A DNA stretch of 31,017 nt, from positions 1 to 31,017 of the IMG/VR virus record IMGVR_UViG_3300031951_017359; one strand, 5' to 3'. The translations under genes were made by a program, and so were the position numbers. A model generated the notes under the pieces. The model saw nothing but the letters and a program-made list of their open reading frames with translations, was not told the DNA's origin and did no database searches. This DNA comes from a virus. Shown here one piece after another: positions 1 to 27,235 of this stretch (the stretch's first letter is position 1; each line of letters starts with the position of its first letter).

Positions 1-2112
1 TCCAGACAAATATCCTTTGGCTTCAGTACCAGAACAGCCAGCGGTATATTGCCGACCCGGAGACAAAATTCCGGGAGCAGAAGAAAGTGTTTCGTTTTGA
101 TAACTAATTTGGTTGATTCTTACTATAAGAGCGCCTGTATAGCCTCCAGCAAAATAACCTTTAAGTGTTGCTCCATCGCTGCCAGTTAGTCCAGTAGTTG
201 GCTCTGGTAATTCTAGAGATGATATTTGAGAAACAGTATTGTTGCTGAAAACAAGACGAATCGTACTTTTTACAGATGTACCAGAGTAGGCCGTTGATCC
301 TCCACTTATATAACCACGGTAAGCCCCATCAGATATGCCAAATCCCCTGTAACGCTTAAGATCGTCTGAATCAAGAGTGCTTCTAGTCTCAGAAGAATAA
401 TCAAAAATATTTGTTTTTGTTGCCAGAGCATTGCTAGCACCACCGGAGAAATAACCTTGTGTGAAAGCCCCACTCAGGCCATGCAAATCTTGTGCAGCTT
501 GGTAAAGAGTTGCTGTGCCAACAAGAGATGCTGCATCGTTGGTAAAATCAACTTTGAAAATATTATTGAAAGCAGTAACGCCATCGGTACTTCCACCACC
601 AACATATCCATATCTGCTACAAGAATATGATCCTCCAGATGGTGGAACGGGTGGTATTGGTGATGGTGGAGTAATTGGTGGTGCAACAGGTGGCCATGGG
701 GGAGGAGAAAAAGGTGCTGCTGGCGATCCGGGTGCTAAGGGTGCCCCCGGTGCTGTTGGAGTTCCCGGTGCCAACGGAGACACAGGTGGATTAGGAACGG
801 GAGATGGTGGTATCGGTGTTCCCGGAGGGACAGGAGGTATCGGCGTTGGTGGCGTTGGAGGAACTGGTGTAGGTGGAACAGGCGTTGGCGGGACTGGCGT
901 TGGAGGAACAGGCGTTGGCGGGACTGGTGTTGGAGGAACAGGAGGAACTGGTGTCGGGGGAACAGGAGGAACTGGTGTCGGGGGAACTGGTGTTGGAGGA
1001 ACTGGTGTCGGTGGAACTGGTGTCGGTGGAACTGGTGCTGGCGGTATCGGAGGGAACGGCGTTGGAGGAATGGGAGAACAAAGACCTTCAACATAAATGT
1101 AGCTAGGAAGATTTATGCTTACAGGACTGATGCTTACTGAACTCGGTATATTTGGAGGATTTACGAAATTTACTATGCTAGGAATTATTAATGGCGGTGT
1201 GATTTTGATTACTGATGGAACAGTAATGGGTCCAAAACCCACGGGGTCTAAACATGGGAATACAATAGGTGGGAGTAAAAGTTGGTTGTTTACATTATTA
1301 GTAAATACAGATGGTAAATTTGGAAATTCAGGTATCGTAGGTACAGCAATATTCAGGTCGATTGTTACCTGCTGTGCCAAAGGTTGATTCAATACATTTC
1401 TCTTGACACCACTCACCACGCCTTCGCAATTTGTTGAAGTTACGGTTACTACTGGGTCAATTGTTGAGTTCGGAGCATAAAGATGGGTGCCACCTGTGAC
1501 GGTTGTTGTGGACTGTTCGTCTCCAAAATCTATTACAAAACTATCAAATGTGCCATTTACTTCTAGATTAAATGCTATAGTAGTTCCAACAGTTATATCT
1601 TCTGAAATTATGTAATAATTAAAATTAATTTCTGGACAGCCATAGTCATCTATTATAGCTCCCTGATTAGCAAGATTTCTTATTCTCCAATCAAGAGTAG
1701 CCTTATCTTGTGCAAGATTAATGCCCATAAAGTTTTCTGCATTAACTATCGCACGGGCAAGCTGATTATGGTGTTCGGCTAGAACAAATCCTCTTACATC
1801 TGTACCAGCAAGATTGTATTGTGGAGGTTGTCCTCCAAGATTACGAATGCAATTCAAAAGTGTATTAATTTTGCCGTTCGAGTCTTTACCGACAGCATCA
1901 TAATAAATCAATTCACCGCTTATTGTCACATATCCATTGTCTGACCAAATCTCATTTTTTTCTAGTTCAACTGGAATGATGTTTATGGTTGTTGCCCAAG
2001 CTTCCAAATTAGCGGACAAAACGGTTTCTGATGTATTGTAAACCTTGAACAGAGTACGATCTGTATCGTAGTCTAGGGGGTATACAACTTTAGGTGGAAA
2101 CGGAACAGCCAA
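1..2112 (-). CDS. Distal tail adhesin/fibre protein with proline stalk and GYxxGG repeats (partial, C-terminus beyond window)
   Basis: The reading frame is open from position 2112 to the window edge (704 codons seen) and lacks only its 3' end. I chose a TTG start at 2112 because AGAAGG lies just upstream and the N-terminus then aligns with the two upstream paralogues. Visible order: a shared N-terminal module with AEHHN at residues 112-116; a PKD-like stretch with DFGD at 195-198; a linker rich in P, I and V; a proline stalk of PVPPT-type repeats (346-492); then GY[VFIL][GSA]GG-type motifs at about 502, 553, 600, 652 and 700. The 47-52 residue spacing of these motifs is typical of beta-propeller blades. 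It is the last visible gene of the minus-strand tail block, after two related PKD proteins. Inference: a surface-exposed receptor-binding or decoration protein. The protein family is not identified with certainty. Confidence 0.8.
637..1077 (-). repeat. Proline-rich tandem repeat (PVPPT units) inside the adhesin gene
   Basis: Imperfect 15-base units read PVPPT on the minus strand, most regular between about 840 and 1060. They are followed by a looser P-x-x region with [10 protein letters not shown]-like runs and then a PPPW/PPIP segment. At the protein level this is a roughly 147-residue polyproline-type stalk between the PKD-like and propeller-like parts. Such DNA can change copy number by slippage, so stalk length may vary between relatives. 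Confidence 0.85.
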
Positions 2113-2142
2113 TTTATTACCTTCTTTTGCAAGTATCTATCG

Positions 2143-4392
2143 TTAGAAAAATCCAAAATTCCATTGATTTCCAGACGGTCTTGCTGGTAATTTAGTAAAT
2201 GTCAAATCCAAATCGTTGAATTTGATGAAGGAATTATTGGAATAATCAAAACTTAAAAAGGCTCTTCTGTCTCCATCAGTAGTTGCCAATAAAGTATTAG
2301 ATTCAGAGTCGTAATTTGTAGCGGTGGTATCTTGCAAAGTAGTAAATTCTGCTGAATTTAGTCCCGGACCACCAGTCCTCCAAACATTTGTTGTTGTATC
2401 AAAAGAAGACACAGCGCCAGTATTATTGAAGAAAAACAAACCACTATTTAGATTTACTAATTGGCCTTCATATTTGACTGGGCCTAATATATCGGGAAGT
2501 TTTTCAAACCCAGCAACAGAATAGTTGGCATCTTCATATGACGCAAAGAAAGATTTGATTTGGAAAAATGTTCCAACAGCATTGTTTTTAAGAATATAAC
2601 CTTTCCTATTTCTCCAAGCATACCTATAGGCGCTAAAGTTGCCATAAATAGCAACGCCACCTGAAAAATCAGCAGCATTGCTCAATAACTCCGAAGCACC
2701 TCCAATAAAATCTCCAGAGGATAGCGTTGCGGTATCGAGCGTATTTGTTACCAAGTCGTGTACTTGTCTTGACAAGTTTGTCAAAGAAAATCCGGGAGAT
2801 TGTGCTACGCTCAAGTTGCCGAATATAAATGTAATTTTATTTAAGAAATTTAATCCAACCCAGTTCCATGGTCGTTCAATATATGTTGGGCCAGCCAGAG
2901 GAAATGCTGTGTAGGTTTCTAAAAACCCGTTGTAACTGATGGCTTTAATCTTTTCATCCGAAATGGTCGCTCCAGAGCGTCCTGTCGCATAATGCAAAAT
3001 AGCTGTTCCTTGAAGTCCTGAAACGATTCCAGACCTTGATGCAAAAGATGTATTTCTTTTAAATTCTCTTAAAAGTTGTGTTGAATTTGTTTCCGACTCC
3101 AAAAATGTTGTTGTAATATCGAGAGTTGTAAAAGAATTTTGTTTTGTCTTGAATGTTTCAGAAATTAATCCAAATTCGGATGTTTGGATAACAGTAGTGG
3201 AGCTACCAAAAAATGTTGAAAGCCACAAATTCTGTCTTTCAACAACATTGATATAGTCTGGGAATGTTGTAATTCTATAAGCTCTACTGTCTGTATCACA
3301 TCTAACAACTACATCGTAAAGACCACCCACAGTATAAAATGCAGTAGTGTTTTGGTCATTACCATGGTTTGTATCATCTGATAGTAGCCATGTGTATTTG
3401 TTAATTGGATCAATTGGATTGCCTGATCCATCGACTTCTTCCCCAGAGTAAGTTCTCCCGGTAGCGGGGTTAATTCCAGTTGGAATCCCTAGAATAACGC
3501 TGACCCCTGTGGGTGTCTTAAATATACCATTTACAACATCCTGATTTTCCACAGCAGAAAATTCGACTACGCAGACATCTGGAGCTTCATACTTAGCATT
3601 TATAAGATCGTTGAATTCTACAGTATCTGTTCCGTATTCATTTACTACTGTCAAGGTGACAGTATATGTTCCCGGTCGAGTATAGGTTTTTTCAATCGTC
3701 CCGCCGTCTAAATCTTCAACTATAACATTGTTTACATAAGAAGGAACATCAGAAGTAGCTTCATAATAAACAACATTGGAAGAAGTATTATCTCCAAAAT
3801 TCCAAAAATACTGAATTGTATTTCCGGGAATATTAGCTCCCAATCGGATAGACTGATTTGTGAATGTTACTGTAAATGGAGCAAGGCCGATTCTTTTATC
3901 AACGCTGAACCAAGCTTTTGGTTCAAATGCCTTGGTATATAAGAAGTTGGTTCTTTCTTCGAGCTTGCCGGTATTGACAGTATTGTAATTTCCCATAATG
4001 CCTTTTTTGCCGACATAATTTTCTATTGCTATTACAGCATCTTTTATATTATTATGATGTTCTGCCATAACATTCATAACAACACTTGTAACTCTACTTG
4101 GCTTATAATGATCAAGTTCAGGATTTATAAGTGTCAAATCGCTGAAGACTGTATCTGTCCTTGAGCCATAATAAAAAGAAAGTCCTCTGTATTGGGGGTC
4201 TGAACATTGCTCGGTCAGAGTGATAATGCCGGTTGTAGGAAATAAAAGAGTTTTTTGAGTGTCTAGCTCAACAGTAATGGTTGTGTCGCCGGGATTATAA
4301 TCTTTTGCCAAAACAAGATATGCAGAATCTTTTACAACATATAAATTTGTTTCTGTGTCTAAGGTAGTTGGAAAAGTAATTTCTGGGGCCAT
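2143..4392 (-). CDS. Tail-associated PKD-domain protein (749 aa)
   Basis: Residues 1-130 are the N-terminal module shared with both neighbours, ending in AEHHN (110-114) and a following helix. Two PKD folds follow. The first (about 159-268) has the typical WNFGDNTSS strand and a closing PGTYTVTLTV. The second (about 273-385) has YTWLLSDD and a GLYDVVV close. The C-terminal 360 residues are rich in F, N, S and T, with repeated short beta-type segments; they may form a propeller or trimeric tip but match nothing I can name. The ATG overlaps the upstream stop as TAATG, and the gene ends 30 bases before the TTG of the next gene. PKD domains are known in surface adhesins, so a role in host attachment is inferred. 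Confidence 0.85.
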   Translation of the reverse strand: MAPEITFPTTLDTETNLYVVKDSAYLVLAKDYNPGDTTITVELDTQKTLLFPTTGIITLTEQCSDPQYRGLSFYYGSRTDTVFSDLTLINPELDHYKPSRVTSVVMNVMAEHHNNIKDAVIAIENYVGKKGIMGNYNTVNTGKLEERTNFLYTKAFEPKAWFSVDKRIGLAPFTVTFTNQSIRLGANIPGNTIQYFWNFGDNTSSNVVYYEATSDVPSYVNNVIVEDLDGGTIEKTYTRPGTYTVTLTVVNEYGTDTVEFNDLINAKYEAPDVCVVEFSAVENQDVVNGIFKTPTGVSVILGIPTGINPATGRTYSGEEVDGSGNPIDPINKYTWLLSDDTNHGNDQNTTAFYTVGGLYDVVVRCDTDSRAYRITTFPDYINVVERQNLWLSTFFGSSTTVIQTSEFGLISETFKTKQNSFTTLDITTTFLESETNSTQLLREFKRNTSFASRSGIVSGLQGTAILHYATGRSGATISDEKIKAISYNGFLETYTAFPLAGPTYIERPWNWVGLNFLNKITFIFGNLSVAQSPGFSLTNLSRQVHDLVTNTLDTATLSSGDFIGGASELLSNAADFSGGVAIYGNFSAYRYAWRNRKGYILKNNAVGTFFQIKSFFASYEDANYSVAGFEKLPDILGPVKYEGQLVNLNSGLFFFNNTGAVSSFDTTTNVWRTGGPGLNSAEFTTLQDTTATNYDSESNTLLATTDGDRRAFLSFDYSNNSFIKFNDLDLTFTKLPARPSGNQWNFGFF

Positions 4393-5411
4393 TATAACAC
4401 CGTAATTCCTTGCGTACTGAATACTCTTAAAACTTGCTGGCCCTCTAAGCCGATGAGAATAGAAGGGTTGTATGTCCCAGCTTTTTGGTAGCTGTGTGTC
4501 ACGACATGCTCATATGGGTCAACTGCAAAATAATTTGTGCCATCATCAAACTGCCAAAGTCTATTGGATATTTGAGCATTTGTTTGATCGATAAATGTAA
4601 AGTTAGTAACAGTTCCACCGTGTTTATCCACATATTCTTGTGAATAACCGATAGTTGGGCTAACATAGAAGAAAGGCTCTGTATATTCGTTTGAAACTTG
4701 AATGTAGCTTGTCTTGGTTGAAAATCCCTGTCCACCAAGCTCTGTTATCACTCTGAGTTGAACTGTGTAGTTGCCCTCTGTCAGATAAGTGTGCGATGGA
4801 TTTTTGTCATAAGAACTGCCACCATCACCAAAATCCCAAAAGAATCGTGTTGAGACTGAGGATGTAAAGTTATGAAAATTAACGGTCAGCGGTGCTGGTC
4901 CTTTTAAAGGATAAGCTCTGAAAAGAGCTTTAGGAGCAAGGTATCTTGCCTCTTGTTGTTTTAAAAGACCATTTAAAGTGGTAATATCTGTGCTGTCTGT
5001 TGTCCCTAAGTTAGATTCAATTTGCAAAATGGCATCTTTGAGAGAATTGTGATGTTCTGCCATGACACCGGCTTCAACTTTTGCACCGGCAGTCCAAGAA
5101 CTTTGTCTTGTGGCGCAAAAGCCTCTAATTATATCTTGAAATGTATTTGATGTCTTTTTTTGGTAGTACATCATTTCACTTGTGAGGCCATCGTAATTTG
5201 CGAGGCTTACACGAATGATGCCTTGTTCCGGGAAATTGGTCGTATCATCTACAACCATGATTTTGCCACTAAACCCAAAGTTTTGCGCCAACTTTGTCGA
5301 AGCTAAGTTTTTAGCCTCATATAAATTATCATAGCTGTCAATAGCTTGTGGATAAAGCGACAGGTCTCCGGGTAGATATCCAATGTCATAAGAAGTTAAT
5401 TTACTGGCCAT
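4392..5411 (-). CDS. Tail-associated protein with two PKD domains (339 aa)
   Basis: This is the shortest of three adjacent paralogues. The shared N-terminal module has AEHHN at 118-122 followed by a helix. PKD 1 (about 161-241) has WDFGDGGSS and a closing GNYTVQLRV. PKD 2 (about 247-339) has WQFDDGTN and a closing AGTYNPSILI, and the protein ends there. It therefore looks like the basal architecture to which the other two copies added distal parts. No clear Shine-Dalgarno sequence precedes the ATG at 5411 (upstream is AATAACTAAACT), whereas most neighbours have one. Its stop overlaps the next ATG, which implies coupled translation. Role inferred: a virion surface or fibre-base protein. Confidence 0.85.
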   Translation of the reverse strand: MASKLTSYDIGYLPGDLSLYPQAIDSYDNLYEAKNLASTKLAQNFGFSGKIMVVDDTTNFPEQGIIRVSLANYDGLTSEMMYYQKKTSNTFQDIIRGFCATRQSSWTAGAKVEAGVMAEHHNSLKDAILQIESNLGTTDSTDITTLNGLLKQQEARYLAPKALFRAYPLKGPAPLTVNFHNFTSSVSTRFFWDFGDGGSSYDKNPSHTYLTEGNYTVQLRVITELGGQGFSTKTSYIQVSNEYTEPFFYVSPTIGYSQEYVDKHGGTVTNFTFIDQTNAQISNRLWQFDDGTNYFAVDPYEHVVTHSYQKAGTYNPSILIGLEGQQVLRVFSTQGITVL

Positions 5412-5423
5412 AGTTTAGTTATT

Positions 5424-6068
5424 TCAATTGAGTAATTTTTTTGCCCCTGACATAGCATTTCCAAGTTGAATTTTCACCTGAGAATCGTCAGGCATAGCAA
5501 GAACAGATTTGATAAGTTCAACGCTAGGTGCAAAACCACACATTGCGTTTAAATTTACCTCTTCTATCAATCTTGAATTCCAATACTCAAGCTGGTTTTT
5601 TTCATCATCAATATCTATTACTTTATTATCTGGATTATACTTATTAAAAACATCAATTATTTTGGCACATTCTGCAAGAATTGCTTCTTTCCTTTCAGCA
5701 ATCTTTAGCATGGCACTTTGGAGATTTTTCAATCTTCTTTCATGCTTTCTTATAAGAATTTCCTTTTTTTGATTTGCTATCTTTTCTAAAACAACATTTT
5801 TGCGAAATGTCGGCTTGTTTTTGAAATATTCCAATTTTAATTTTGCCAATTCCAAATTATCTTGGGCTTCTTCCATTTCTAAATTGACAGCTGCTAAATT
5901 TTCTTTTCTCGAATTTAATTCACGAATACATTGCCACAATTTTCCATTTGTTGTGGTTTCCTTCCCAAGCATAAAATGTTCAATTTGAAAATTTGTGTGC
6001 TTGGGAAGGACTTTATGTTTTTCGGTCAAAGAATTTAGTTGTTCTTCGATGTTTTTATGATCAGACAT
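5424..6068 (-). CDS. Coiled-coil protein of the tail gene block (214 aa)
   Basis: I place the start at the ATG at 6068, preceded by GAGGG four bases upstream. A longer form from a TTG at 6098 would overlap the previous gene and has no better ribosome binding site. The protein is mostly charged alpha-helix from about residue 45 to 155, rich in K, E, L and N and predicted to be a coiled coil. A more compact C-terminal section contains QLEYWNSRLIEEVNLN. A LWQCIRE motif lies near residue 45. I recognise the general look of conserved phage hypothetical proteins encoded near tail fibre genes but cannot give a function. A structural or assembly-chaperone role is possible from context only. Confidence 0.75.
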   Translation of the reverse strand: MSDHKNIEEQLNSLTEKHKVLPKHTNFQIEHFMLGKETTTNGKLWQCIRELNSRKENLAAVNLEMEEAQDNLELAKLKLEYFKNKPTFRKNVVLEKIANQKKEILIRKHERRLKNLQSAMLKIAERKEAILAECAKIIDVFNKYNPDNKVIDIDDEKNQLEYWNSRLIEEVNLNAMCGFAPSVELIKSVLAMPDDSQVKIQLGNAMSGAKKLLN

Positions 6069-6075
6069 TAAACCC

Positions 6076-6594
6076 TCATATGTTGCAAGCGCCAACAATC
6101 GCTTTAAATTTTACACCATTCTGCAAAGCACGATCAGCCCATAATATTTTAGTATCTTGCAGGTCATTTCCAGACCCAAATTCACCAACCTTGTCATAAA
6201 ATGCTTTATTTATCAATATGCCATTCATGGAGCCTCTGACAAAATCATGAATCCTATTTACAACTGGAAAGAGTACATCCCTTTCATTTTCAACATATTG
6301 AGACAATTTAAGATCAATTTTTTTCTTGATTACTGAACCGGCAAAAACAATAAATGCCCATTCAGATTTCACATTTTTTAAAGCAACATCTATTAACGAT
6401 GTGACACAAAGTCCACCTTTATATATTTTTATTTCTGATGGTTCAACTTCTCTGTTTTCTGGAATAACACCTATGACTTTGTAATCTTTGGTCAAGAAGC
6501 ATGAGCTTTTTTGAGTTTTTCGTATTTTAGAAAAATCTCCATCAATACAAATAATACAAATTTCCATATCAATTGATTTGGAAACATAGAGCAT
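6076..6594 (-). CDS. Glycosyltransferase-like protein, probably non-catalytic (172 aa)
   Basis: The layout resembles a shortened GT-A (family 2-like) fold. It starts with a strand EICIICIDGD (11-20). A helix-strand pair SLIDVALKNVKSEWAFIVFAGSVI follows, at the place where the family has W-x-(hydrophobic)-D-D-D. A later NGILINKAFYDKVGEFGSGND...ADRA segment (124-155) corresponds to the acceptor-side part of GT2 enzymes. The metal-binding DxD is not visible: the strand reads IVFAGS. At 172 residues it is shorter than a full GT2 domain. It lies between a virion protein and a coiled-coil gene, so it may be a structural derivative or may modify virion proteins. Start ATG 6594 has only a weak GAG upstream; ATG 6567 is an alternative. 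Confidence 0.6.
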   Translation of the reverse strand: MLYVSKSIDMEICIICIDGDFSKIRKTQKSSCFLTKDYKVIGVIPENREVEPSEIKIYKGGLCVTSLIDVALKNVKSEWAFIVFAGSVIKKKIDLKLSQYVENERDVLFPVVNRIHDFVRGSMNGILINKAFYDKVGEFGSGNDLQDTKILWADRALQNGVKFKAIVGACNI

Positions 6595-6612: not shown

Positions 6613-7461
6613 TTAAAGAGGAACTTCAAAATCAATCACGATAATATCATTGGCCGTAATCGGATTCAATAATGAAAATCCATTCGGTGTTCCATTTTCT
6701 GTGAATTGATTTAAAGTCCAAGAAGTCAGAGGATCAGCTGTTGGAATATAAATAGCAGGCGTTGGACTAGATGGCACTCTTACCCCATTTATGTAGACTT
6801 TCAAAGAACCAGCAGTAAAAGTTATTGGTGTAGGAGATGCTGTATAATAGTTTTGATAATCAGGTGTAAGAGAAACGCTTGCAGGTACTATATTGTCATA
6901 ATGTTGGTGAGCATTTGCCAAACTTGATACAACATCTGCTCTTACAGCTTGTCCACCTGTTGATGTCCAAGTTATGGTAGTTGAATCTTCAAAACTTATT
7001 ATACCATTATCAAAACTAAGTGGAGATGGAGTAGCATCAGGGAAGTCTATAGTGATATTTTTAGCTTCATCATCAATTAAGGCTAATTTTTCTCTCTCTG
7101 CCTGAAGCATCCTGACAAATGGTACCGGATTTGTTACAAGAGGATAGTCTGCTTGATAGGCTGAAAGCTCTCCAGAATCAACAGTAAAGCTTCCGTCAGT
7201 ATGAGCACCTATGTTGTGCAAGCTTGTGTCAACAGCTGCTGTTTTTAAATCTCCATTTAACTCAAGAGATTGATCTAGTCTGCCAGCCAAACTTCCAGCT
7301 GTGCCATATGTCGCAGCAATAGCTGCTGTGTTGGCATCAACAGCCGTATTGATTAAATCTTCACGGGCTACGAGAGCATCAATAGGCAAGTTGTCATACA
7401 CATAGTGATATGGCTGACTTGGCTGGTATCTAGGTACAGAAATGTTATTGATATCTGGCAT
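6613..7461 (-). CDS. Virion structural protein, tail fibre/baseplate associated (282 aa)
   Basis: The N-terminal half is helical and contains LKTAAVDTSLHNIGAHTDG (about 72-90) and FVRMLQAEREKLALIDDEA. The C-terminal half is beta-rich, with a segment reading GSLKVYINGVRVPS that is typical of phage fibre and head-fibre beta domains. I associate this combination with structural proteins of T4-like aquatic phages, but no precise T4 counterpart can be assigned. Upstream, AGGAAATAAATATAAT precedes the ATG, giving a rather distant Shine-Dalgarno sequence. It lies between a 159-residue virion protein and the glycosyltransferase-like gene on the same strand. Confidence 0.75.
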   Translation of the reverse strand: MPDINNISVPRYQPSQPYHYVYDNLPIDALVAREDLINTAVDANTAAIAATYGTAGSLAGRLDQSLELNGDLKTAAVDTSLHNIGAHTDGSFTVDSGELSAYQADYPLVTNPVPFVRMLQAEREKLALIDDEAKNITIDFPDATPSPLSFDNGIISFEDSTTITWTSTGGQAVRADVVSSLANAHQHYDNIVPASVSLTPDYQNYYTASPTPITFTAGSLKVYINGVRVPSSPTPAIYIPTADPLTSWTLNQFTENGTPNGFSLLNPITANDIIVIDFEVPL

Positions 7462-7479
7462 ATTATATTTATTTCCTAT

Positions 7480-7493
7480 TATAAAATTTTATA
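7480..7493. other. Perfect 14-base AT palindrome between two tail genes
   Basis: TATAAAATTTTATA is its own reverse complement and lies in the 32-base gap between two minus-strand virion genes. This is one of the few real gaps in the tail block. It has no G-C pairs, so it would be a weak hairpin. It could be a processing, operator or promoter element, or chance in AT-rich DNA. Confidence 0.3.
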
Positions 7494-7973
7494 TTATACG
7501 AATGACAAAGACCAGTTCCATGTTATTTGCATGCTGCTACTTTTTGTAATTGGTGGAAATGTCACCATGCTATAATAATCACCACTATTCAAAACCAAAG
7601 CCATCTCACTCAAACTGTATCCATTCCCATCATCATATGTTAATACTGAAGTGAAAATAGCTTGAGTTGAGTTGTCAGGATTAGCAGTTGACACTACTGG
7701 TTTAGTGGCACGGACAGTTCCAAAAAGGCCCGTTCGATTTGTTGTGACAAGTTTCGGGGTTCCACTTCCATCAACACCACCATCACCAAAAACCATTCTA
7801 TTGACAAAAAGATTGGGATAGTCACCAGTATTATTAATTAATGTATTTACTAGGGCGTTTCGTCCCAAGATAAGCACCGTATTAGGACAGCTTATTTTCA
7901 AAGACTTGCCATTGTTGTATTCAATCACACCCTCAATTGAACCCATGGCTTTGATATTATCTGAACAGTTCAT
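7494..7973 (-). CDS. Virion structural protein following the gp7-like gene (159 aa)
   Basis: This is a compact, beta-rich protein. A strand NTVLILGRNALVNTLIN is followed by the glycine-rich VFGDGGVDGSG, then TNRTGLFG and a final WNWSLSFV strand. It begins with a TAATG overlap with the stop of the upstream gene, and AGGAGAGAT gives it a strong ribosome binding site. The position directly after the baseplate wedge genes suggests a baseplate-proximal fibre connector or a small tail protein. The fold is not one I can name, and there is no identifiable catalytic motif. Confidence 0.7.
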   Translation of the reverse strand: MNCSDNIKAMGSIEGVIEYNNGKSLKISCPNTVLILGRNALVNTLINNTGDYPNLFVNRMVFGDGGVDGSGTPKLVTTNRTGLFGTVRATKPVVSTANPDNSTQAIFTSVLTYDDGNGYSLSEMALVLNSGDYYSMVTFPPITKSSSMQITWNWSLSFV

Positions 7974-10900
7974 TATATCTCTCCTGTTTCAACACGACCA
8001 TCTGCGTACTCTATCTTTATATTTATAAATTCTTGTGGCTTTATACTATCAGATATTCCCGGTTTTTCTGGTTTCATGGCTAATTGTGTCATGTTTTCCA
8101 TCATACTAAAAGAGTAATTGACAGCATAATCATAAATTTCTTGTCCTAATCGACTTACATCATAAAGTTGCTCTCCGAACAATTGTATGGATTCTTTTGA
8201 ATAACGGAAAATTTGGAATGTAGTCGGAGTTCCTGTTGCGACTCCATAATCAATAAGTGCTCCGTCTAGAACCCAATAAGTATCAGGCCCTATCGTCATA
8301 ACTTCACTTATGGCAAACAGTTTTGGAACGGCAACAAAATATTGTGCTACCAAGTAATTCCATATAAAATTATTATTATCAACAACTGCACTTGCTGGAT
8401 TATCAAAGACTGGCCATCCGGGCAACGCTTTAATCATCATTCCTCGATAACCGAAATTACCCGTTGTATCATCCACAAGTCTTTTTAGTATTTTGCCAGC
8501 AACCGTACCAGTCCCACCATTCCAGTCGTATACCAAGAAAGATTGGTTATCTCCATCTACATAGCTATAAAACTTGAACTGATCTGATGTTGAATCAAGG
8601 TAAAAATATCCACTTCCATCTATAAGTGTGTTAACATTGTTATAATTCAAACTTGGATCAATTGTTATTTTGCCTATTACTTCAACAACATAGTTTCCGT
8701 TGCTGGATGTAAGTTCAGTTGCTGTTGGACTTAACAAAGACCAGTTAACGCCTGTCGCAGAAACATTGCTTAAGGTTCCGTCATCTTCTATTATTAGAAC
8801 ATCATCATGCATATCTAATATGTCATATGTGCCTGTCGGCAAAATCACCTGCCAAGCTTGGGCAGCGTATCCGTTGTTTACATCCCAAACAGTTTTGATT
8901 GCATAATCACTCAAAACAACCGAATCATCATTTAATTTGTAAATATTTGCTTGTGCTGCTGTAAAATTGCTATCGGCTAGATTAATATTTGAAAGCCTAA
9001 ATGTAAAAGACGATTTATTCAAACTGGGAGTTTCATTTACTGGAATAGTTTGTGACACATCTATGAAATTAGCGTTCGGATTTTGAACACAATATTCTCC
9101 AGAGTTTGCTGAAGGAGACAGTACTTCTAGTAAAGTTTCTGTATCAACATCTCTTACACCAAGAGTCTGAAAATTTACTTCGGAACAAAATAATGTAATT
9201 GCTTGATTGTATGCGTCCGTGCCTTCAATAATGTACCAAGACCATTGAGTTGCCAATTCGTTCCTGTATACTGCGTTTTGATCCAATCCTAAATACATGG
9301 CCCTATTCAAAACATATTGTGCCATTCCAGCTATGCAGTAATCATCTTGGTTGTAATGAATTAATGCCTCATATTGTTCAATTGGAGGCAATATAATATC
9401 TTCGAATTTACCAGTAAAATTTAGAGTATGCAGTATTGAATGCATCGGGGTAAAATCATTAATAATACTTTGACATTCAGTTATTCTATCGTCTGATAAA
9501 TCACTTATTTCCACATCCAAGGAAAATTTTGCACTTATTCCATTACTGCAAGGTTCGATGAAGCTCTTGTCGATATCACAAGGTTTTTGCGAATCACGCA
9601 ATGATCCATTGTATTCATCCATGTTGTATACATTTTCTGAATATGGGAACTTCGTTCTGACTTTACCAAAATAAAGGTAGTCAACGAAAGGATTTTTTTG
9701 TGTGACTACCGTGCTAAAGTCAGAATTAGATTCTGATATTACTTTGGTATTCCAATCCTTGGGTGGATATTTAAAATTTCTGTCATCTCGCAAGTCAGCT
9801 AATGGCAGAGCATTAATGATGTTATATCTAGTTAACTCTGCACCAGTTGGCAAGTAAAGAAGATAAGTAATTTTTATAACTTCACCAACTTCATTTACAG
9901 GATCATAATATAATTCATCTCCAGTCCATGTCATGGTGCTTATACCACCACTCGTAGAAATAGTGATGTTTGATAAACTTTCTGTCTGATAACTTGTATC
10001 AACAGTATCGAATGGGTCTCTTTTTTCTAAGCTAAAAAATGGAGTATAAGTCACATTTGTTGGATCAAGTGAAACATAAGACAATGTAAAATTATAACTT
10101 CCTGTAAACTCAAAAGTCTCGGTAAAAACTGCATTTGTTCTACATTGCCAAAGTTGGGAATAGTTCAGCAACCCTATGCCTGCATTAGATAATGCTTCTT
10201 TGAGCCCATCATAAGTTCCTTTTTTCTTGCACAAAGGTATTGCTGTTTTTATTTGCCTTCTCCAAAGTGTCACATCTGTGGACCTGAGAGGCATACCAAA
10301 GAAATTGGCTAAATATCCTAAAATCGGTTCCTGAGTTGCATTTGCATCCGTTATGTCAACAAGCTGAACACCAAGGTTATCTAGTACGGTAAATCCATCA
10401 CCTATTGCATAGTTTAATTTATCTAATGTTGGTACTGTTAGATCATCTTTTGCATATGACATTTTGTACATCTCTGGGAGGTATGAATCCAGAAGATTTT
10501 TGTACTTATTTGGATCAACAATATGCGCTGGGCTGGTAACTTCATTTGATATGTTGCTATTTACATAAAAATGCAGGTAGGCAGAAAACCTGTCACCAGC
10601 TAAGTTTGGAGCCCATGTCCAGCATAAATAAAAATCACCTTCCCTGATAGTTCCGTTTGGTGACCAGATAAATTTGAAATGACCGTTTTGGACTTCTCCG
10701 CTTGCTCCAGTAATTTTAGAAATAATTGAATCAGTATTTGGACCAGCAGCAGTCCAAACTGGATAAGTTGAAGTTCCAACATTGAAAATTATGTCTGCTT
10801 GGGTATACCAAGTGCTGTTATAGATGCTCGTAGCTTCGAATTGTTTTTTTAATTTAAAGGCATTTGCAATATTTGTTTCAGTCGGATCATCACAAGCCAA

Positions 10901-11119
10901 TTGTTGAGCGTCTAAATATTCTTTTTGTTTAGAAACATCAAATTGATCAACCAAAGAAAGTGTATCTTTGGTACCATTGAGATTTCTTTCAACAAAGTAA
11001 ATTTTGATGTTTTCAACGGCATAAGGATCAGCAAAGAAGCAACCATCTGCGTCTGGAGTATAGAAATCAAATTCAATCTGGTCAGTTACCTTCGGATTGT
11101 TGTAATATAAAATTGCCAT
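7973..11119 (-). CDS. 7: Baseplate wedge protein, tail protein I / gp7-like (1048 aa)
   Basis: Residues about 207-326 match the tail-protein-I pattern. A LLDSYLPEMYK stretch is followed by an EPILGYLANFFGMPL segment, then WRRQIKTAIPLCKKKGTYDGLKEALSNAG, where the KGT and 'LKEAL..AG' signature sits in this family. Total length (1048) is close to T4 gp7 (1032), far longer than a minimal P2-type gpI. Gene order (gp25-like, gp6/J-like, then this gene) is the conserved myovirus wedge order. The remaining N- and C-terminal parts are beta-rich and unassigned. Start ATG 11119 has GAGGAG upstream. Assignment to gp7 is an inference from order, size and the internal domain. Confidence 0.75.
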   Translation of the reverse strand: MAILYYNNPKVTDQIEFDFYTPDADGCFFADPYAVENIKIYFVERNLNGTKDTLSLVDQFDVSKQKEYLDAQQLACDDPTETNIANAFKLKKQFEATSIYNSTWYTQADIIFNVGTSTYPVWTAAGPNTDSIISKITGASGEVQNGHFKFIWSPNGTIREGDFYLCWTWAPNLAGDRFSAYLHFYVNSNISNEVTSPAHIVDPNKYKNLLDSYLPEMYKMSYAKDDLTVPTLDKLNYAIGDGFTVLDNLGVQLVDITDANATQEPILGYLANFFGMPLRSTDVTLWRRQIKTAIPLCKKKGTYDGLKEALSNAGIGLLNYSQLWQCRTNAVFTETFEFTGSYNFTLSYVSLDPTNVTYTPFFSLEKRDPFDTVDTSYQTESLSNITISTSGGISTMTWTGDELYYDPVNEVGEVIKITYLLYLPTGAELTRYNIINALPLADLRDDRNFKYPPKDWNTKVISESNSDFSTVVTQKNPFVDYLYFGKVRTKFPYSENVYNMDEYNGSLRDSQKPCDIDKSFIEPCSNGISAKFSLDVEISDLSDDRITECQSIINDFTPMHSILHTLNFTGKFEDIILPPIEQYEALIHYNQDDYCIAGMAQYVLNRAMYLGLDQNAVYRNELATQWSWYIIEGTDAYNQAITLFCSEVNFQTLGVRDVDTETLLEVLSPSANSGEYCVQNPNANFIDVSQTIPVNETPSLNKSSFTFRLSNINLADSNFTAAQANIYKLNDDSVVLSDYAIKTVWDVNNGYAAQAWQVILPTGTYDILDMHDDVLIIEDDGTLSNVSATGVNWSLLSPTATELTSSNGNYVVEVIGKITIDPSLNYNNVNTLIDGSGYFYLDSTSDQFKFYSYVDGDNQSFLVYDWNGGTGTVAGKILKRLVDDTTGNFGYRGMMIKALPGWPVFDNPASAVVDNNNFIWNYLVAQYFVAVPKLFAISEVMTIGPDTYWVLDGALIDYGVATGTPTTFQIFRYSKESIQLFGEQLYDVSRLGQEIYDYAVNYSFSMMENMTQLAMKPEKPGISDSIKPQEFINIKIEYADGRVETGEI

Positions 11120-11128
11120 TACTCCTCA

Positions 11129-12682
11129 TTACTCATATTGGAAATCAATCTGAATGTTGTCTGGTCGAATTATTTCATAAAACTTGGTGGTTACCTGAGA
11201 GCCACTATTATTCGGATCAGATGTAGTCAAGTTTACCTCATAACGATATGGTTCAGAAATATTTGACAAAGCTTTTATAACATCCGTATTTCTTAGAATC
11301 TGACCATAATCCCAGTTATTCAAGTTGAAGAAAATAGCAAGGTTTCTTTCTATTTTGGCCCTGATATTTTCCTCAAATGTTCTGTAGTATTTGTCCAAGA
11401 CAACATCTATTGATAAGGATGTAAGAACTATAACACCATCTTTGATACAAATAAAATCTGTCAACATTTTTTTGGTGTTCAGATAGTCGGTAAGTTCTGC
11501 CTTGAACTGTGACGAAGCCAAGGTCAGCCCATTATCACCTTGCTTAACCAGAGCGTAAATATCAACAATATTTGCAGCACATCCGTTATGTCTTAATGCA
11601 GCAGTTGATTTTCCCATTACACCATTATATGGTGTTACAAAATTATCACACAATGTCTTATAGTCAGAACCTGTTACTGCCCTATCTTGTGTCCTATTAT
11701 AGTTAGGAAGTTTTCTCCTAATATCTTCTACTGTATCTCCGTTATACCCGAACTCACCACGGGTATAATTACTCAGATTGACCAGTACGCTAAAATCCTG
11801 ACCTTCAATAGGAATCAAAGTTTCTACATTTGCAAAATTCGTAACTATATTCCCGTTTGTACCACCACCCACACGATAAGTGACTGTGATCACGGCTCCA
11901 GCGGGAGGGATCAATCCAGCACGATTGTTGCCAAATATGATGAAAGCGCTGTAATCAGATGTGTACTCAACACGATATTCTCTTCGGGGTTGTGAATCCG
12001 TAAAGAAAGGAACTTGTTCCCATCTTTGTCCATCAACATCAACTCGTATGGAATCCATAAGTACTGGTCTAAAATTTAACAAACTATTTTGGTTAATTTC
12101 TCCTGTTCCCACAAAGGTATCGGTAAATGTCTGACCCTCTACTCCAACAATATTCGAATTGGTGATTGCACCAGCTGGGATGATAATAGGTTGGTCAAAA
12201 ATAGGTCTATTGAAGACATCGGCTGGAAATAGTTCGAAATTAACCCCAGCACCGTTGTTTACCAAGCTTACATCGAAAGGAGTTGGAATTGTGAGGTCGA
12301 TTGTTTGGGGTGCATTTATTCTTGCTGTCCACAGACATTTAGAAGCTATAGGTGGCATGGGTTGGTAGCCAACAAGTTTTGCCAACCTAAATGCATTCTC
12401 TATTTCTGTGACAGTATCGATAAAAACTTCATTTGCAATTTGATCGATTTTGAATGAAAGAGTATCTGCAATAAAAGACCAGTTCTCGATCAACATCAAA
12501 GCAAGGCTTGATTCTACAAAATCATTGAACTGATCGCCAAATCTTTCTTTTATGAATGTTATCAATCTGGCTTTCATAGACCAGAAATCTTGGTTGGTAT
12601 AGTTTAGATTTACAGGCGTGGGGCGATTCTGTATATTCGTAGACTTATACGGTAAAACTTCAAAAGGACATGTTTCTGCCAT
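11129..12682 (-). CDS. 6: Baseplate wedge protein, gp6 / baseplate J-like (517 aa)
   Basis: The N-terminal part, LITFIKERFGDQFNDFVESSLALMLIENWSFIADTLSFKIDQIANE, is typical of gp6/J wedge proteins. The middle and C-terminal parts carry the J hallmarks: a glycine-rich GNNRAGLIPPAGAVITVTYRVGGGTNGN stretch, then 'NYNRTQDRAVTGSDYKTLC' and a beta-alpha domain ending in FQYE. In myoviruses this protein dimerises to form the wedge ring around the hub. It starts one base after the stop of the gp25-like gene and is followed after 9 bases by the gp7-like gene. Length is intermediate between P2 gpJ (about 300) and T4 gp6 (660). Confidence 0.88.
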   Translation of the reverse strand: MAETCPFEVLPYKSTNIQNRPTPVNLNYTNQDFWSMKARLITFIKERFGDQFNDFVESSLALMLIENWSFIADTLSFKIDQIANEVFIDTVTEIENAFRLAKLVGYQPMPPIASKCLWTARINAPQTIDLTIPTPFDVSLVNNGAGVNFELFPADVFNRPIFDQPIIIPAGAITNSNIVGVEGQTFTDTFVGTGEINQNSLLNFRPVLMDSIRVDVDGQRWEQVPFFTDSQPRREYRVEYTSDYSAFIIFGNNRAGLIPPAGAVITVTYRVGGGTNGNIVTNFANVETLIPIEGQDFSVLVNLSNYTRGEFGYNGDTVEDIRRKLPNYNRTQDRAVTGSDYKTLCDNFVTPYNGVMGKSTAALRHNGCAANIVDIYALVKQGDNGLTLASSQFKAELTDYLNTKKMLTDFICIKDGVIVLTSLSIDVVLDKYYRTFEENIRAKIERNLAIFFNLNNWDYGQILRNTDVIKALSNISEPYRYEVNLTTSDPNNSGSQVTTKFYEIIRPDNIQIDFQYE

Positions 12683-12683
12683 C

Positions 12684-13103
12684 TTATGCCTCGCCTATTG
12701 GTACTTGCAATGTTAAATCTTCAACTACATCAATATTATTAAAGGTGCTGAACTTTATTTTTATATACAAAAAATTCTCAAGGTTCTGTTTTGGATCACC
12801 AGATGGAAATGTAGCATTGGTTGCGCTGTTCTCAACATCTATTGAATCTACTACTATTCTTGGCTCCCATTGCTGAATTGCCTGAATGATAGCAGACCTT
12901 GCAGTATCAGCTAACATCGTAGTATTTGGTTCAAAAAGAAGTCTTCTAAGTGGTGTGCCATATGTAGGCAACATTACTCTATCACCGGGATTTGTAAGTA
13001 GCAGCTGAATCAAATCTCCCTTGATACCAGTCAATCCCGTGGTGGGAGCTAAAAGGCCAAGTGGGGTTTTTACTATTGGAAACGGTGCTGCTAATAAATC
13101 CAT
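12684..13103 (-). CDS. 25: Baseplate wedge protein gp25-like (139 aa)
   Basis: The family core is clear: a loop GDRVMLPTYGTPLRRLLFEPN (41-60, with the usual G-x-R/P-G-x-L-x-x-L-F-E pattern), a helix TARSAIIQAIQQWEPRI, then a beta segment VVDSIDVE and a terminal beta hairpin. Length agrees with T4 gp25 (132 aa) and the P2 gpW / GpW-gp25 family. Known role: the small wedge component that contacts the sheath and nucleates its assembly. It has a strong AGAGGAG ribosome binding site and is tightly followed by gp6/J, as expected. This is the most secure assignment of the cassette. Confidence 0.92.
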   Translation of the reverse strand: MDLLAAPFPIVKTPLGLLAPTTGLTGIKGDLIQLLLTNPGDRVMLPTYGTPLRRLLFEPNTTMLADTARSAIIQAIQQWEPRIVVDSIDVENSATNATFPSGDPKQNLENFLYIKIKFSTFNNIDVVEDLTLQVPIGEA

Positions 13104-13114
13104 AGCTCCTCTAA

Positions 13115-15220
13115 TTATCTTGGATTAACATAAGGTCTCATGTTATATATGGATACAGTCGGAGCTTGTGGAGAACAACTGGCAAATATTCTGTCACTTA
13201 TTTTAAGCACTCCACCACCATTACTTCCGGGTACAAACACGACTACTGGAAAACAACCCGGACCTTTCCCTTGAGGCTTTCCGTTCTTATCCTTTGGCAG
13301 ATCATAGTCTCGACCAGAAAGCAAGATGATGTCTCTTTGTGCATTATATATAACTCTGTTGGCTCCTGTATATGAGTAGTCTTTGATCTGTTCATATTTT
13401 TTATCTGAAACAAATGTTATTTTGCTAGCTGGATTATCAACAAACTTTCCATCTTTTTGCTCATAGCCCACAAATTCTACTGAATTATCACAACTAGACT
13501 GAATTAAATTGCCACCGGCTCTCAAATAAAGAGTCCCCGGTCCAGTAGGTTGTTCAGCCATTAACATGAAATGTGGCCCACGCTTAGTATTGTCTCTTTG
13601 TGGAGAAATTAAACGCATATATTGAAATTGTGTTTTTTCTTGCGATCCATTATCAACCAAATCAAGAGTCATCCCATATCCAGTTCTTACAACAATATAT
13701 CCAAAACTAGCTTTATTAACTGGAGTTCCACCTTCTTTACGGCATGGAATAGGCCTTTTGTTTCCTTTATCTGACATCTTGATAATATTGTTACTTGTGC
13801 TTCTTATTAAAACGCCTTGATTTTCAGTTGCCGGTGATGGGCAATTTGGCCCTTCTGAATCATCACAAAGAAAAAGTTCATTTCCTAAAGCAGTTTTTAG
13901 TCTAATACCGTTGTTGGCCCCACGGGTTTGCTTGGTGTCTCCACCTTTTTCAACATCATTTAATTCTATTGTATGTCCAGTTGCAGACTTCCAGTATGTT
14001 CTGCCCAGATACATATCGGTACAACCAAAATCAAACGGTTTGGTGCTTCTATTCCACTCCATGTTTCCTTGAGGGTCTTTAACTGAGTCATCCATCACTA
14101 AAGTGTGTCCAGAAATTGATAATATTTGGACACCAGACTGTGGTAAGTCACATCTATTATTTTGTGGTGTTTGCGGACCTTTGTATGGCCTGCATTCGTT
14201 TGCATGTTTGAAAAAAGGATTAGAACCTTTTTGTGTAGTTTTACCTTGGTAATCGGGTGACCCACCAATTATGTTGCCGTTACAAGTAGGGTTTTCAGTT
14301 TTTTTTGTTTGAAAATTCAAGACATCAATTTCATCTGGTATAATATCTGCATTTGCATAGTCTGCAAACAAAGTAACATCTTCAGCACTCCTTGGTGCTG
14401 GATTAGGAACGCCTTCTACACAACTTGTATCTCCCGCACGGACTCCACAATCAGGGTGCGCCCATTGACCAGCGTAGTGCAGATGGTCATCTTTGAAAAT
14501 CATCCAGTTGCCGTTGCCAGACATGATTTCTAATCTTTTCCACTTCCTATTGCACTTGGCATCTCCATCGACCATCTTCACCATGTGTTTTTCTGGAGTT
14601 TTGAATCCATAAATATTTGGGTAAGTCAGTCTTTTTGCTGCATTTGGAGAGTTTTCTAAATCTTGAATGCTAGTTATATCAAATCCGTTATAGCTTTCTG
14701 TATTCCATGGTGGCAAAACCTGTGATCCATCGTTAGGGCCACATAAGTAGCCACCTCTTCTTCCCTCATATATTTCTTGATATTCAGGTATTGGAATCGG
14801 GAATTTATGTTGTCCATCTGGTCCCCTATCTCTAGACCAAGTAGTGCCAAGATAATAGCCTACGGACCTATTTCCAGCTTCAAAAACCAACATAACAGTA
14901 CTGCCTGCTGGTGGAACCCATGACGATCCGCTGTCATCAAAACCTCCCAAAGTAGATATAGGGTAGGCAAAAGGTAAGGATTTGTAAGGTGAATTAGGAT
15001 CATGAAGCTGTGGTGAAAAAAACCGTATTCTATTTTGTTTATAAACATCCAAAGTATCAATACAAAGAGCAGAGTAAACCCCGTAAACAGATTGCTTTTG
15101 TTTTAATAAGCGCACATTTTGTTTTTTTGGACCGCCTTTCATGGCTTTGTCTAGCCCCAGCGATTTCATATAATTTTCAAGCTGTGATACTTTAGCTTCT
15201 AAATCAGCAAGTTTTTTCAT
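13115..15220 (-). CDS. 5: Baseplate central spike, gp5-like with OB fold (701 aa)
   Basis: An N-terminal short coiled coil (1-25) precedes an OB-type domain (about 45-130). That domain reads VYGVYSALCIDTLDVYKQNRIRFF, then LPFAYPISTLGG, WVPPAGSTVMLVFEAGN and GYYLGTTW, the same strand order as gp5/gpV spikes. A long Gly/Asn/Asp-rich beta region follows, with repeated 'SGHTLVMDD', 'TGHTIELND' and 'SNNIIKMSD' segments. This resembles the repeated strands of a spike beta-helix. No lysozyme catalytic motif is visible, unlike T4 gp5. The extreme C-terminus is YNMRPYVNPR. It starts directly after the hub gene and precedes gp25. Role: the membrane-piercing tip of the tail tube. Confidence 0.82.
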   Translation of the reverse strand: MKKLADLEAKVSQLENYMKSLGLDKAMKGGPKKQNVRLLKQKQSVYGVYSALCIDTLDVYKQNRIRFFSPQLHDPNSPYKSLPFAYPISTLGGFDDSGSSWVPPAGSTVMLVFEAGNRSVGYYLGTTWSRDRGPDGQHKFPIPIPEYQEIYEGRRGGYLCGPNDGSQVLPPWNTESYNGFDITSIQDLENSPNAAKRLTYPNIYGFKTPEKHMVKMVDGDAKCNRKWKRLEIMSGNGNWMIFKDDHLHYAGQWAHPDCGVRAGDTSCVEGVPNPAPRSAEDVTLFADYANADIIPDEIDVLNFQTKKTENPTCNGNIIGGSPDYQGKTTQKGSNPFFKHANECRPYKGPQTPQNNRCDLPQSGVQILSISGHTLVMDDSVKDPQGNMEWNRSTKPFDFGCTDMYLGRTYWKSATGHTIELNDVEKGGDTKQTRGANNGIRLKTALGNELFLCDDSEGPNCPSPATENQGVLIRSTSNNIIKMSDKGNKRPIPCRKEGGTPVNKASFGYIVVRTGYGMTLDLVDNGSQEKTQFQYMRLISPQRDNTKRGPHFMLMAEQPTGPGTLYLRAGGNLIQSSCDNSVEFVGYEQKDGKFVDNPASKITFVSDKKYEQIKDYSYTGANRVIYNAQRDIILLSGRDYDLPKDKNGKPQGKGPGCFPVVVFVPGSNGGGVLKISDRIFASCSPQAPTVSIYNMRPYVNPR

Positions 15221-15222
15221 CT

Positions 15223-26599: not shown

Positions 26600-27235
26600 A
26601 TGAAAAACTACATGCAAGTTGACGGAAGAATTCGTTGCAAGCCATCTGATCTTGGTGTATCAGCACCCGTAATCAGAGTGAATAAAGCTTTCAACTATGA
26701 GATGGTTGAAAAGTTCTCTGATGATTTTAATCATGCATTAGAAAAGAAACCAAAAATTATACCGATAGTTATAGATTCATACGGTGGAGAAGTATACTGC
26801 CTCCTCGAAATGGTAAGCCTAGTCAAATCCTCTCCTGTGCCGGTTGCAACTATTTGCAACGGAAAAGCCATGTCTTGCGGAGCCTTGCTCTTCATGTTTG
26901 GCACGAATGGATTGAGATTCATGTCAGACCAAGCCACTATTATGTTGCATGAAGTCAGTTCCGGTTCATATGGCAAGGTTGAAGAAGTCAAGGCAAACGC
27001 CAACGAAACGGATAGACTTAATAAGATGATTTTTGAAATGGTAGCAAAGCATATCGGTTTTCCTGAAAATCATTTTCTTGAAATGCTTCATAGACAAAAC
27101 CATGCCGAAATATTCATGGATGCTAAATCAGCTAAAAAACATAAAATATGTAATCATATCGGTGTCCCAGAACTTGTTACAGAAGTAAATGTTGAGTATA
27201 AGTTTAAGCTTAATAATAAGGAAATAGAAATTTAA
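26600..27235 (+). CDS. ClpP-like serine peptidase (211 aa)
   Basis: The ClpP/crotonase core is clear: IPIVIDSYGGEVYCLLEMV (substrate-binding GG strand, 54-72), PVATICNGKAMSCGALLFMFG with candidate nucleophile Ser92, and ATIMLHEVSSGSYG with His117. E. coli ClpP carries its catalytic Asp in the 'ERDRFLSA' segment; the equivalent here, AEIFMDA, offers Glu170. At 211 residues it is the length of a bacterial ClpP precursor, with no obvious N-terminal axial-loop signature. Phage members of this fold can be prohead proteases (lambda C-type) or stand-alone ClpP-like proteins; no capsid gene is nearby to decide. No clear Shine-Dalgarno sequence lies before ATG 26600; ATG 26612 is an alternative. Confidence 0.85.
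   Translation: MKNYMQVDGRIRCKPSDLGVSAPVIRVNKAFNYEMVEKFSDDFNHALEKKPKIIPIVIDSYGGEVYCLLEMVSLVKSSPVPVATICNGKAMSCGALLFMFGTNGLRFMSDQATIMLHEVSSGSYGKVEEVKANANETDRLNKMIFEMVAKHIGFPENHFLEMLHRQNHAEIFMDAKSAKKHKICNHIGVPELVTEVNVEYKFKLNNKEIEI

What the first reader, a model, noticed from the sequence alone, without database searches (positions are those of the whole stretch)
1..5411. Three consecutive genes share an N-terminal AEHHN module and PKD domain but differ in their distal parts
The proteins ending at 4392, 2143 and beyond position 1 each begin with a similar 120-140 residue module closing in (V)(M/L)AEHHN...(A)(I/V)...E...(G). Each continues into at least one PKD-type domain (WDFGD, WNFGD, IDFGD). 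After that they diverge: one stops after PKD 2, one gains a 360-residue beta tip, one gains a proline stalk and propeller-like repeats. This looks like tandem duplication of a virion-anchoring module with exchange of receptor-facing ends, a modular adhesin array.
Basis: partly seen in the sequence, partly recalled or inferred. Interest (0 to 1): 0.65.

Follow-up and report, generated by a model that had tools for sequence, protein, structure and literature searches.

The report
Three-fibre baseplate cassette of huge phages
Three neighbouring genes of an uncultured huge-phage relative make tail proteins that start with the same attachment module; the first two are conserved throughout the family and only the outer end of the third varies, so the likely host-contacting part can be pinned to one protein.

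Summary
The N-terminal ~155 residues of the three minus-strand genes A (4392-5411, 339 aa), B (2143-4392, 749 aa) and C (from 2112 off the window edge) are homologous well beyond AEHHN: profile-profile probability is 99.2-99.6%, and 96-97% for the beta part alone. A and B carry two PKD-type domains each; C carries a divergent one. B's '360-residue beta tip' models as a kelch-like beta-propeller.

Duplication of a shared module is supported, but it is old. The order A-B-C holds in 97 fetched loci, never rearranged, one array per long record. In 40 nonredundant loci the distal parts of A and B diverge at nearly the rate of their modules (identity ratios 0.98 and 0.87), so they are not exchanged. 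Only C's distal part is replaced or resized (608-3048 aa, ratio 0.61, half alignable), and C is itself re-duplicated in eight loci.

C's conserved collar holds an apparently undescribed 11-12-residue repeat (IPSxIxIxP): 4 copies here, up to 118 in relatives.

Best reading: a baseplate fibre cassette with two fixed proteins and one variable adhesin. Assembly and receptor binding are inferred. It works like the Ackermannviridae branched complex, but no sequence relationship was found.

The parts
4392..5411 (-). Protein A, 339 aa: module + two PKD-type domains
   Evidence: ORF; Pfam PKD_4 1.6e-20, 2 stretches; median length of orthologues 342.5
4938..5411 (-). Module of A (residues 1-158)
   Evidence: hhalign to B and C modules 99.6%; AlphaFold beta strands 37-114 then helices 120-134 and 146-158
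5004..5060 (-). AEHHN helix of A (residues 118-136), heptad 3-4-3-4 pattern
   Evidence: hydrophobic in 99/99/90/99% of 73 family sequences at +3, +7, +10, +14; low monomer pLDDT
4692..4928 (-). PKD domain 1 of A (residues 162-240)
   Evidence: Pfam; Foldseek ColG PKD TMt 0.84-0.85 for the A model
4395..4679 (-). PKD-like domain 2 of A (residues 245-339)
   Evidence: second Pfam stretch; hhalign to PKD1 97.6%
2143..4392 (-). Protein B, 749 aa: module + two PKD-type domains + kelch-like propeller
   Evidence: ORF; AlphaFold mean pLDDT 85
3928..4392 (-). Module of B (residues 1-155)
   Evidence: hhalign to A 99.6%, to C 99.2%
4009..4065 (-). AEHHN helix of B (residues 110-128)
   Evidence: motif alignment
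3223..3921 (-). Two PKD-type domains of B (residues 158-390)
   Evidence: Pfam PKD_4 6.7e-11, 2 stretches; hhalign of B PKD1 to A PKD1 99.2%, B PKD2 to A PKD1 93.6%
2146..3222 (-). Conserved beta-propeller head of B (residues 391-749)
   Evidence: Foldseek: designed kelch-type propeller SAKe6BE TMt 0.62, BcepSaruman kelch protein TMt 0.61; last 300 aa form one cluster in 40 of 40 nonredundant loci
1..2112 (-). Protein C, first 704 aa (cut by window edge)
   Evidence: ORF with TTG start preceded by AGAAGG; relative L006 gives a 2090-aa complete form
1663..2112 (-). Module of C (residues 1-150)
   Evidence: hhalign; tree
1723..1779 (-). AEHHN helix of C (residues 112-130)
   Evidence: motif alignment
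1393..1641 (-). PKD-like domain of C (residues 158-240)
   Evidence: 10 of 20 orthologues hit PKD_4, best 1.4e-4; hhalign to A PKD1 93%
1078..1221 (-). Four IPSxIxI repeats, 12-13-residue spacing (residues 298-345), conserved collar
   Evidence: conserved P and S columns in 20 orthologues; counts and spacing in 41 C proteins
631..1065 (-). Proline-rich stalk of C (about residues 350-494), variable length even in near-identical phages
   Evidence: alignment of window C with L004 and L006
1..630 (-). Start of the kelch-like GYFAGG repeat region of C
   Evidence: PHROG 19111 1.2e-15; repeats counted; continues in L006 into RCC1 repeats
5424..6098 (-). 224-aa protein upstream of A (looks coiled-coil rich), conserved neighbour
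   Evidence: homologue upstream of A in 37 of 39 testable loci; PHROG 1409 1.3e-6
6613..13103 (-). Baseplate genes: gp25, gp6-like, gpI-domain 1048 aa, collar-fibre-N-like 159 aa, 282 aa
   Evidence: Pfam/PHROGs; synteny, e.g. gpI protein 12/12, 159-aa protein 35/35 testable loci

Best explanation
A-B-C is the tail-fibre cassette at the end of the baseplate operon of a family of uncultured huge phages. Each protein begins with the same module: a small beta-domain of the kind found near the N-terminus of giant cyanophage gp7 proteins, followed by a short heptad-patterned helix (AEHHN...). I infer that this module oligomerises and docks each protein on the baseplate or on its neighbour. A (module + 2 PKD) and B (module + 2 PKD + kelch-like propeller) are fixed parts, probably an adaptor and a conserved fibre head. 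C (module + PKD + IPSxIxI collar + shaft + distal repeats) is the variable adhesin: its outer part is replaced, lengthened or shortened, and the whole gene can be re-duplicated (A-B-C-C). Shown: homology, synteny, fixed versus variable parts. Inferred: docking, oligomeric state, receptor contact.
For: Module homology. Order A-B-C in 89 loci plus A-B-C-C in 8, no other order. Exactly three module copies in each of five long records of 340-595 kb. Position next to gp25/gp6/gpI genes, with conserved neighbours. Distal/module identity ratio A 0.98, B 0.87, C 0.61 in 780 pairs of 40 nonredundant loci; distal C aligns over only 49% of the longer protein. The last 200 aa of C fall into 6 clusters against 1 cluster each for the ends of A and B. 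In near-identical phages the proline stalk of C already differs in length. Second C copies group inside the C clade, one as sister of its own C with 99/97 support. Cyanophage gp7 resemblance of the beta part: PHROG 2885 E 6.9e-8 for A, 16 of 59 modules match. Heptad pattern.
Against: No direct evidence of docking or oligomer formation: complexes were not modelled. In one clade (L021, L085-L087, L092, L113) B has a long Pro-rich or adhesin-like stretch fused in frame before the module, so the module need not be the N-terminal, anchored end. Many C proteins of relatives show no recognisable globular tip, only IPSxIxI repeats to near the C-terminus, so binding by a 'tip' may hold only for some clades. 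Low pLDDT over the helix may mean disorder rather than an unmodelled oligomer. Shuffled C distal parts still give identity 0.26 because of biased composition and forced global alignment, so the C ratio is approximate.
Confidence: 0.68

Rival explanations
1. Full modular adhesin array: each of the three proteins is an independent receptor-binding protein whose tip is exchanged between phages.
For: Shared module with different distal parts; kelch-like propeller on B and kelch/RCC1 repeats on C.
Against: Ends of A and B are not exchanged in 40 nonredundant loci; they form one cluster each. A has no tip beyond two PKD domains.
Confidence: 0.1
2. Structural cassette without a direct receptor role: A, B and C build whiskers, collars or a baseplate extension, and the true receptor-binding protein lies elsewhere, e.g. 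the 159-aa collar-fibre-like or 282-aa proteins.
For: A and B evolve like structural proteins; the beta part occurs in cyanophage gp7 baseplate proteins; many C proteins lack a recognisable globular tip.
Against: C's distal part is the least conserved and most length-variable of the parts compared, stalk length varies between near-identical phages, and C re-duplicates, as expected for a host-contacting fibre.
Confidence: 0.2
3. Chance or low-complexity resemblance: AEHHN and PKD motifs recur independently.
For: PKD domains are common and mobile; window C shows no PKD match in a single-sequence Pfam scan.
Against: Profile-profile probabilities 96-99.6% with and without AEHHN; conserved order in 97 loci.
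Confidence: 0.02

Closest known systems
Branched tailspike complex of Ackermannviridae (CBA120 TSP1-4; T4 gp10 XD domains), PMC8825819
   Same: Several receptor-binding proteins whose N-terminal parts assemble on the baseplate and with each other, and whose outer ends determine specificity.
   Different: No match of the module profile to any PDB chain below E 0.1; no TSP4-N or gp10 among the 50 listed Foldseek matches of A or B (PKD and propeller parts dominate those lists). Here two of the three proteins have fixed ends. Ends are PKD, propeller and repeat shafts; no enzymatic tailspike was detected.
Giant gp7-annotated baseplate protein of T4-like cyanophages (P-HM1 gp7, S-RIM32, Sf-CH1b; PHROG 2885)
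   Same: The beta half of the module occurs near the N-terminus of this protein, encoded right after gp25-gp6.
   Different: In cyanophages it is one small part of a protein of thousands of residues; the AEHHN helix and the PKD domains of A/B/C are not aligned there.
PKD domains (Pfam PF18911/PF00801), clostridial collagenase ColG/ColH PKD
   Same: Sequence and fold match.
   Different: Here part of phage tail proteins; the PKD of C is strongly diverged.
Kelch-like beta-propellers, e.g. BcepSaruman kelch-motif protein
   Same: Fold of B's distal domain (TMt 0.61-0.62).
   Different: No Pfam kelch match in B; about 10% sequence identity.
Trimeric viral fibre shafts with short repeats (e.g. triple beta-spirals)
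   Same: Short Pro-containing hydrophobic repeats that could set shaft length (idea from general knowledge).
   Different: The 11-12-residue IPSxIxIxP repeat matches no Pfam or PHROGs family and no convincing PDB chain; its fold was not modelled.

Membership tests
Ackermannviridae/CBA120-type branched receptor-binding complex | N-terminal anchor and XD1-XD3 domains homologous to T4 gp10/TSP4-N | tested here: not met
   Module profile against all PDB sequences: only two chance hits at E 0.11; no such entry among the 50 listed Foldseek hits of the A and B models
Ackermannviridae/CBA120-type branched receptor-binding complex | Several adjacent genes with shared N-terminal modules next to baseplate genes | tested here: met
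Ackermannviridae/CBA120-type branched receptor-binding complex | Proteins bind one another through N-terminal domains | not testable with these tools
   no complex modelling available
PKD domain | Pfam PKD profile above gathering score (A, B) | tested here: met
   A 73.4 and B 42.5 bits against cut-off 27
PKD domain | Pfam PKD profile above gathering score (C) | tested here: inconclusive
   window C no hit; 10 of 20 orthologues hit at E<=0.1, best 1.4e-4; profile match to A PKD1 93%
Kelch-like beta-propeller (B tip) | Propeller fold | tested here: met
   pLDDT mostly about 90 over the domain; Foldseek kelch/propeller hits TMt 0.61-0.62
Kelch-like beta-propeller (B tip) | Kelch sequence motif in Pfam | tested here: not met
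   no Pfam kelch hit
Cyanophage gp7-type beta-domain | Profile match of the beta half | tested here: met
   PHROG 2885 E 6.9e-8 (A), 16 of 59 modules at E<=0.01; alignments (E-values there are for a set of six proteins)

The most novel reading that the evidence does not exclude
The IPSxIxIxP 11-12-residue repeat of protein C is an undescribed fibre-shaft element whose copy number (4 in the window, 3 to 118 in relatives) sets the reach of the fibre. It is mounted by a dedicated module on a baseplate cassette found so far almost only in uncultured huge-phage contigs, with B's fixed propeller as a common first-contact head and C as the exchangeable one.
Probability: 0.4. Interest if true: 0.6.

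Novelty: new variant of a known kind. Interest (0 to 1): 0.45.

Why it matters
It gives a conserved, recognisable tail-fibre locus for a widespread group of uncultured huge phages (188 stretches encoding C-type relatives in IMG/VR). It separates fixed from variable fibre parts, so the likely host-range determinant can be read from one gene. The repeat shaft of C offers a clean case of shaft-length evolution.

Tried and rejected
(1) Tip exchange in A and B: rejected by full-length conservation. (2) Homology to solved baseplate anchors: no sequence match. (3) Cultured relatives: only LR756511 (595 kb, uncultured, unannotated) matches A, B and C in the phage collection; weak cyanophage hits cover only the beta part. 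(4) Bacterial genomes: a single hit, a contig in a Neisseriaceae MAG that carries A-B-C, more likely a co-binned phage contig than a host clue. (6) Literature searches for huge/jumbo phages with PKD and for RCC1/kelch tail fibres found nothing in the held library. (7) L004's 923-aa C ends in a sequence unlike L006 just after a shared stretch; treated as a possible frameshift and not used as the full-length form.

Full report
WHAT THE WINDOW IS. The window is a 31,017-base virus record. Its minus strand carries a myovirus tail operon: an OB-domain baseplate protein (Phage_base_V, 13115-15220), gp25 (12684-13103), a gp6-like wedge protein (11129-12682), a 1048-aa protein with a Tail_P2_I domain (7973-11119), a 159-aa protein resembling a collar-fibre N-terminus, proteins of 282, 172 and 224 aa, and then A, B and C. 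The only record of the phage collection matching A, B and C is LR756511, an unannotated 595-kb uncultured phage. Relatives in IMG/VR include contigs of 299, 511, 527 and 533 kb. I therefore call the group huge phages; the window itself is only a fragment.

THE OBSERVATION. The three N-termini are homologous. Single-sequence local scores far exceed 1000 shuffles. Without the AEHHN segment A-B and B-C remain significant and A-C does not. With family profiles all three pairs exceed 99%, and reach 96-97% with only the beta part. No other ORF of the window (80 aa or more) carries the module at E<10. PKD domains: two stretches each in A and B by Pfam; the C domain is diverged but recognised in half of its orthologues and by profile comparison.

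ANATOMY. AlphaFold of A (26-sequence alignment) gives mean pLDDT 72.6: a beta module (strands 37-114), helices 120-134 and 146-158, and two beta domains; the model matches collagenase PKD domains at TMt 0.8-0.85. B (21 sequences) gives mean pLDDT 85, with a propeller-like distal domain whose best matches are kelch-type propellers. In both models the AEHHN helix has low confidence as a monomer. In 73 family sequences its positions +3, +7, +10 and +14 from the second H are hydrophobic in 99, 99, 90 and 99%, a 3-4-3-4 heptad spacing that suggests, but does not show, a coiled coil.

RELATIVES. 45 loci were found with A and 79 with C. Classified by A-, B- and C-specific profiles, 89 loci read A-B-C and 8 read A-B-C-C. 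The rest are partial views cut by locus or contig ends, or the clade with inserted sequence described below; no other order occurs. Some loci are overlapping views of the same contig, so 97 is not a count of independent phages; the 40 nonredundant loci below are the fairer number. Five long records (340-595 kb) hold exactly three modules each. Upstream neighbours are conserved: 224-aa protein 37/39, 172-aa 36/38, 282-aa 34/36, 159-aa 35/35, gpI-domain 12/12 of the loci where they could be seen. In the module tree A is one side of a branch (99/97), C-type copies including second copies are another (100/98), and B is one side with weaker support (70/88). The split into three is therefore older than the sampled family.

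THE DECISIVE TEST. In 40 nonredundant loci (A below 90% identical; 780 pairs) mean identities are: A module 0.50, A distal 0.49; B module 0.53, B distal 0.46; C module 0.53, C collar (module end to residue 345) 0.43, C distal 0.33 over the aligned 49%. The shuffled baseline for C distal is 0.26. Lengths: A 322-485, B 647-969, C 608-3048. The last 300 aa of B and the last 100 aa of A each form one similarity cluster; the last 200 aa of C form six, one of which holds 29 of the 40. So two of the three proteins are fixed and one is variable, and within C much of the variation is in the length and make-up of the part between collar and C-terminus.

PROTEIN C. C has a PKD-like domain and a collar of IPSxIxI repeats. 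In the window there are four, 12-13 residues apart. In relatives the repeat runs up to 118 copies (L090; lag-11 self-identity 0.61) and makes up most of the distal part. L090, L066 and others match no Pfam or PHROGs family over this part, and the L090 repeat finds no convincing PDB chain. In the window's own clade the collar is followed by a proline stalk, kelch-like GYFAGG repeats and, in L006 and L029, RCC1 repeats. The stalk differs in length between the window and L004, which is otherwise identical over the compared stretch; assembly error in repeats cannot be excluded. Second C copies: L024 D is 71% identical to its own C over 868 columns, L029 D 55% over the N-terminal 302 and L009 D 52% over 345.

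A COMPLICATION. In one clade the ORF after A is not an ordinary B. In L021 it starts at A's stop codon, as B does in the window, but has about 810 Pro-rich and Cys-rich residues before the module. L085, L086, L087, L092 and L113 show the same kind of in-frame stretch, open at the locus end. In L013 two giant ORFs without a module follow A. The module can thus be internal, which weakens the simple picture of an N-terminal anchor.

FUNCTION. Inference: the cassette encodes baseplate-attached fibres. The beta half of the module resembles a part of giant cyanophage gp7 proteins encoded right after gp25-gp6, which fits a baseplate location. Fast change and re-duplication of C fit a host-contacting adhesin. 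Oligomeric state, docking partners and receptor are unknown.

COMPARISON. The organisation resembles the Ackermannviridae branched tailspike complex, in which N-terminal domains assemble several tailspikes on the baseplate (PMC8825819, abstract read). Membership is not claimed, as no relationship to its anchor domains was found. Phage proteins with Ig-like or PKD domains acting as adhesins are known in the literature (PMC13370021, list entry only).

VERDICT. Real and informative, but a variant of a known kind of organisation. The most novel part is the IPSxIxIxP repeat shaft, which needs a structure.

Noticed in passing
L090 (C protein, locus 9989-16135); also L036, L066, L088, L089, L096: 11-12-residue IPSxIxIxP repeats in up to 118 copies; L090, L066 and L036 find no Pfam or PHROGs family for them, L090 no convincing PDB chain.
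   Followed up: partly
L021:3842-8284, L085, L086, L087, L092, L113: Long Pro-rich or Cys-rich adhesin-like stretch fused in frame before the module of protein B.
   Followed up: partly
L013:11020-17760 and 17776-21015: Two giant ORFs after A with GYFAGG kelch-like repeats but no module; the same repeat type sits at the end of window C.
   Followed up: partly
window 29454-29825 (-): S-adenosylmethionine decarboxylase (AdoMet_dc, 3.7e-16), a possible auxiliary metabolic gene.
   Followed up: no
window 26600-27235 (+) and 25139-26569 (+): ClpP-like protease (6.2e-24) and a PolyA_pol/CCA-adding-type nucleotidyltransferase (6.1e-20), divergent from the tail operon.
   Followed up: no
window 29952-30830 (+): Methyltransferase (Methyltransf_23, 1.3e-15).
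   Followed up: no
L133 (RXKI01000071.1, Neisseriaceae MAG AWTP1-37): A-B-C cassette on a 25-kb contig binned in a bacterial MAG; probably a phage contig.
   Followed up: no
L004:9493-12264: C protein of a near-identical phage ends at 923 aa in a sequence unlike the 2090-aa L006 C; possible frameshift.
   Followed up: no
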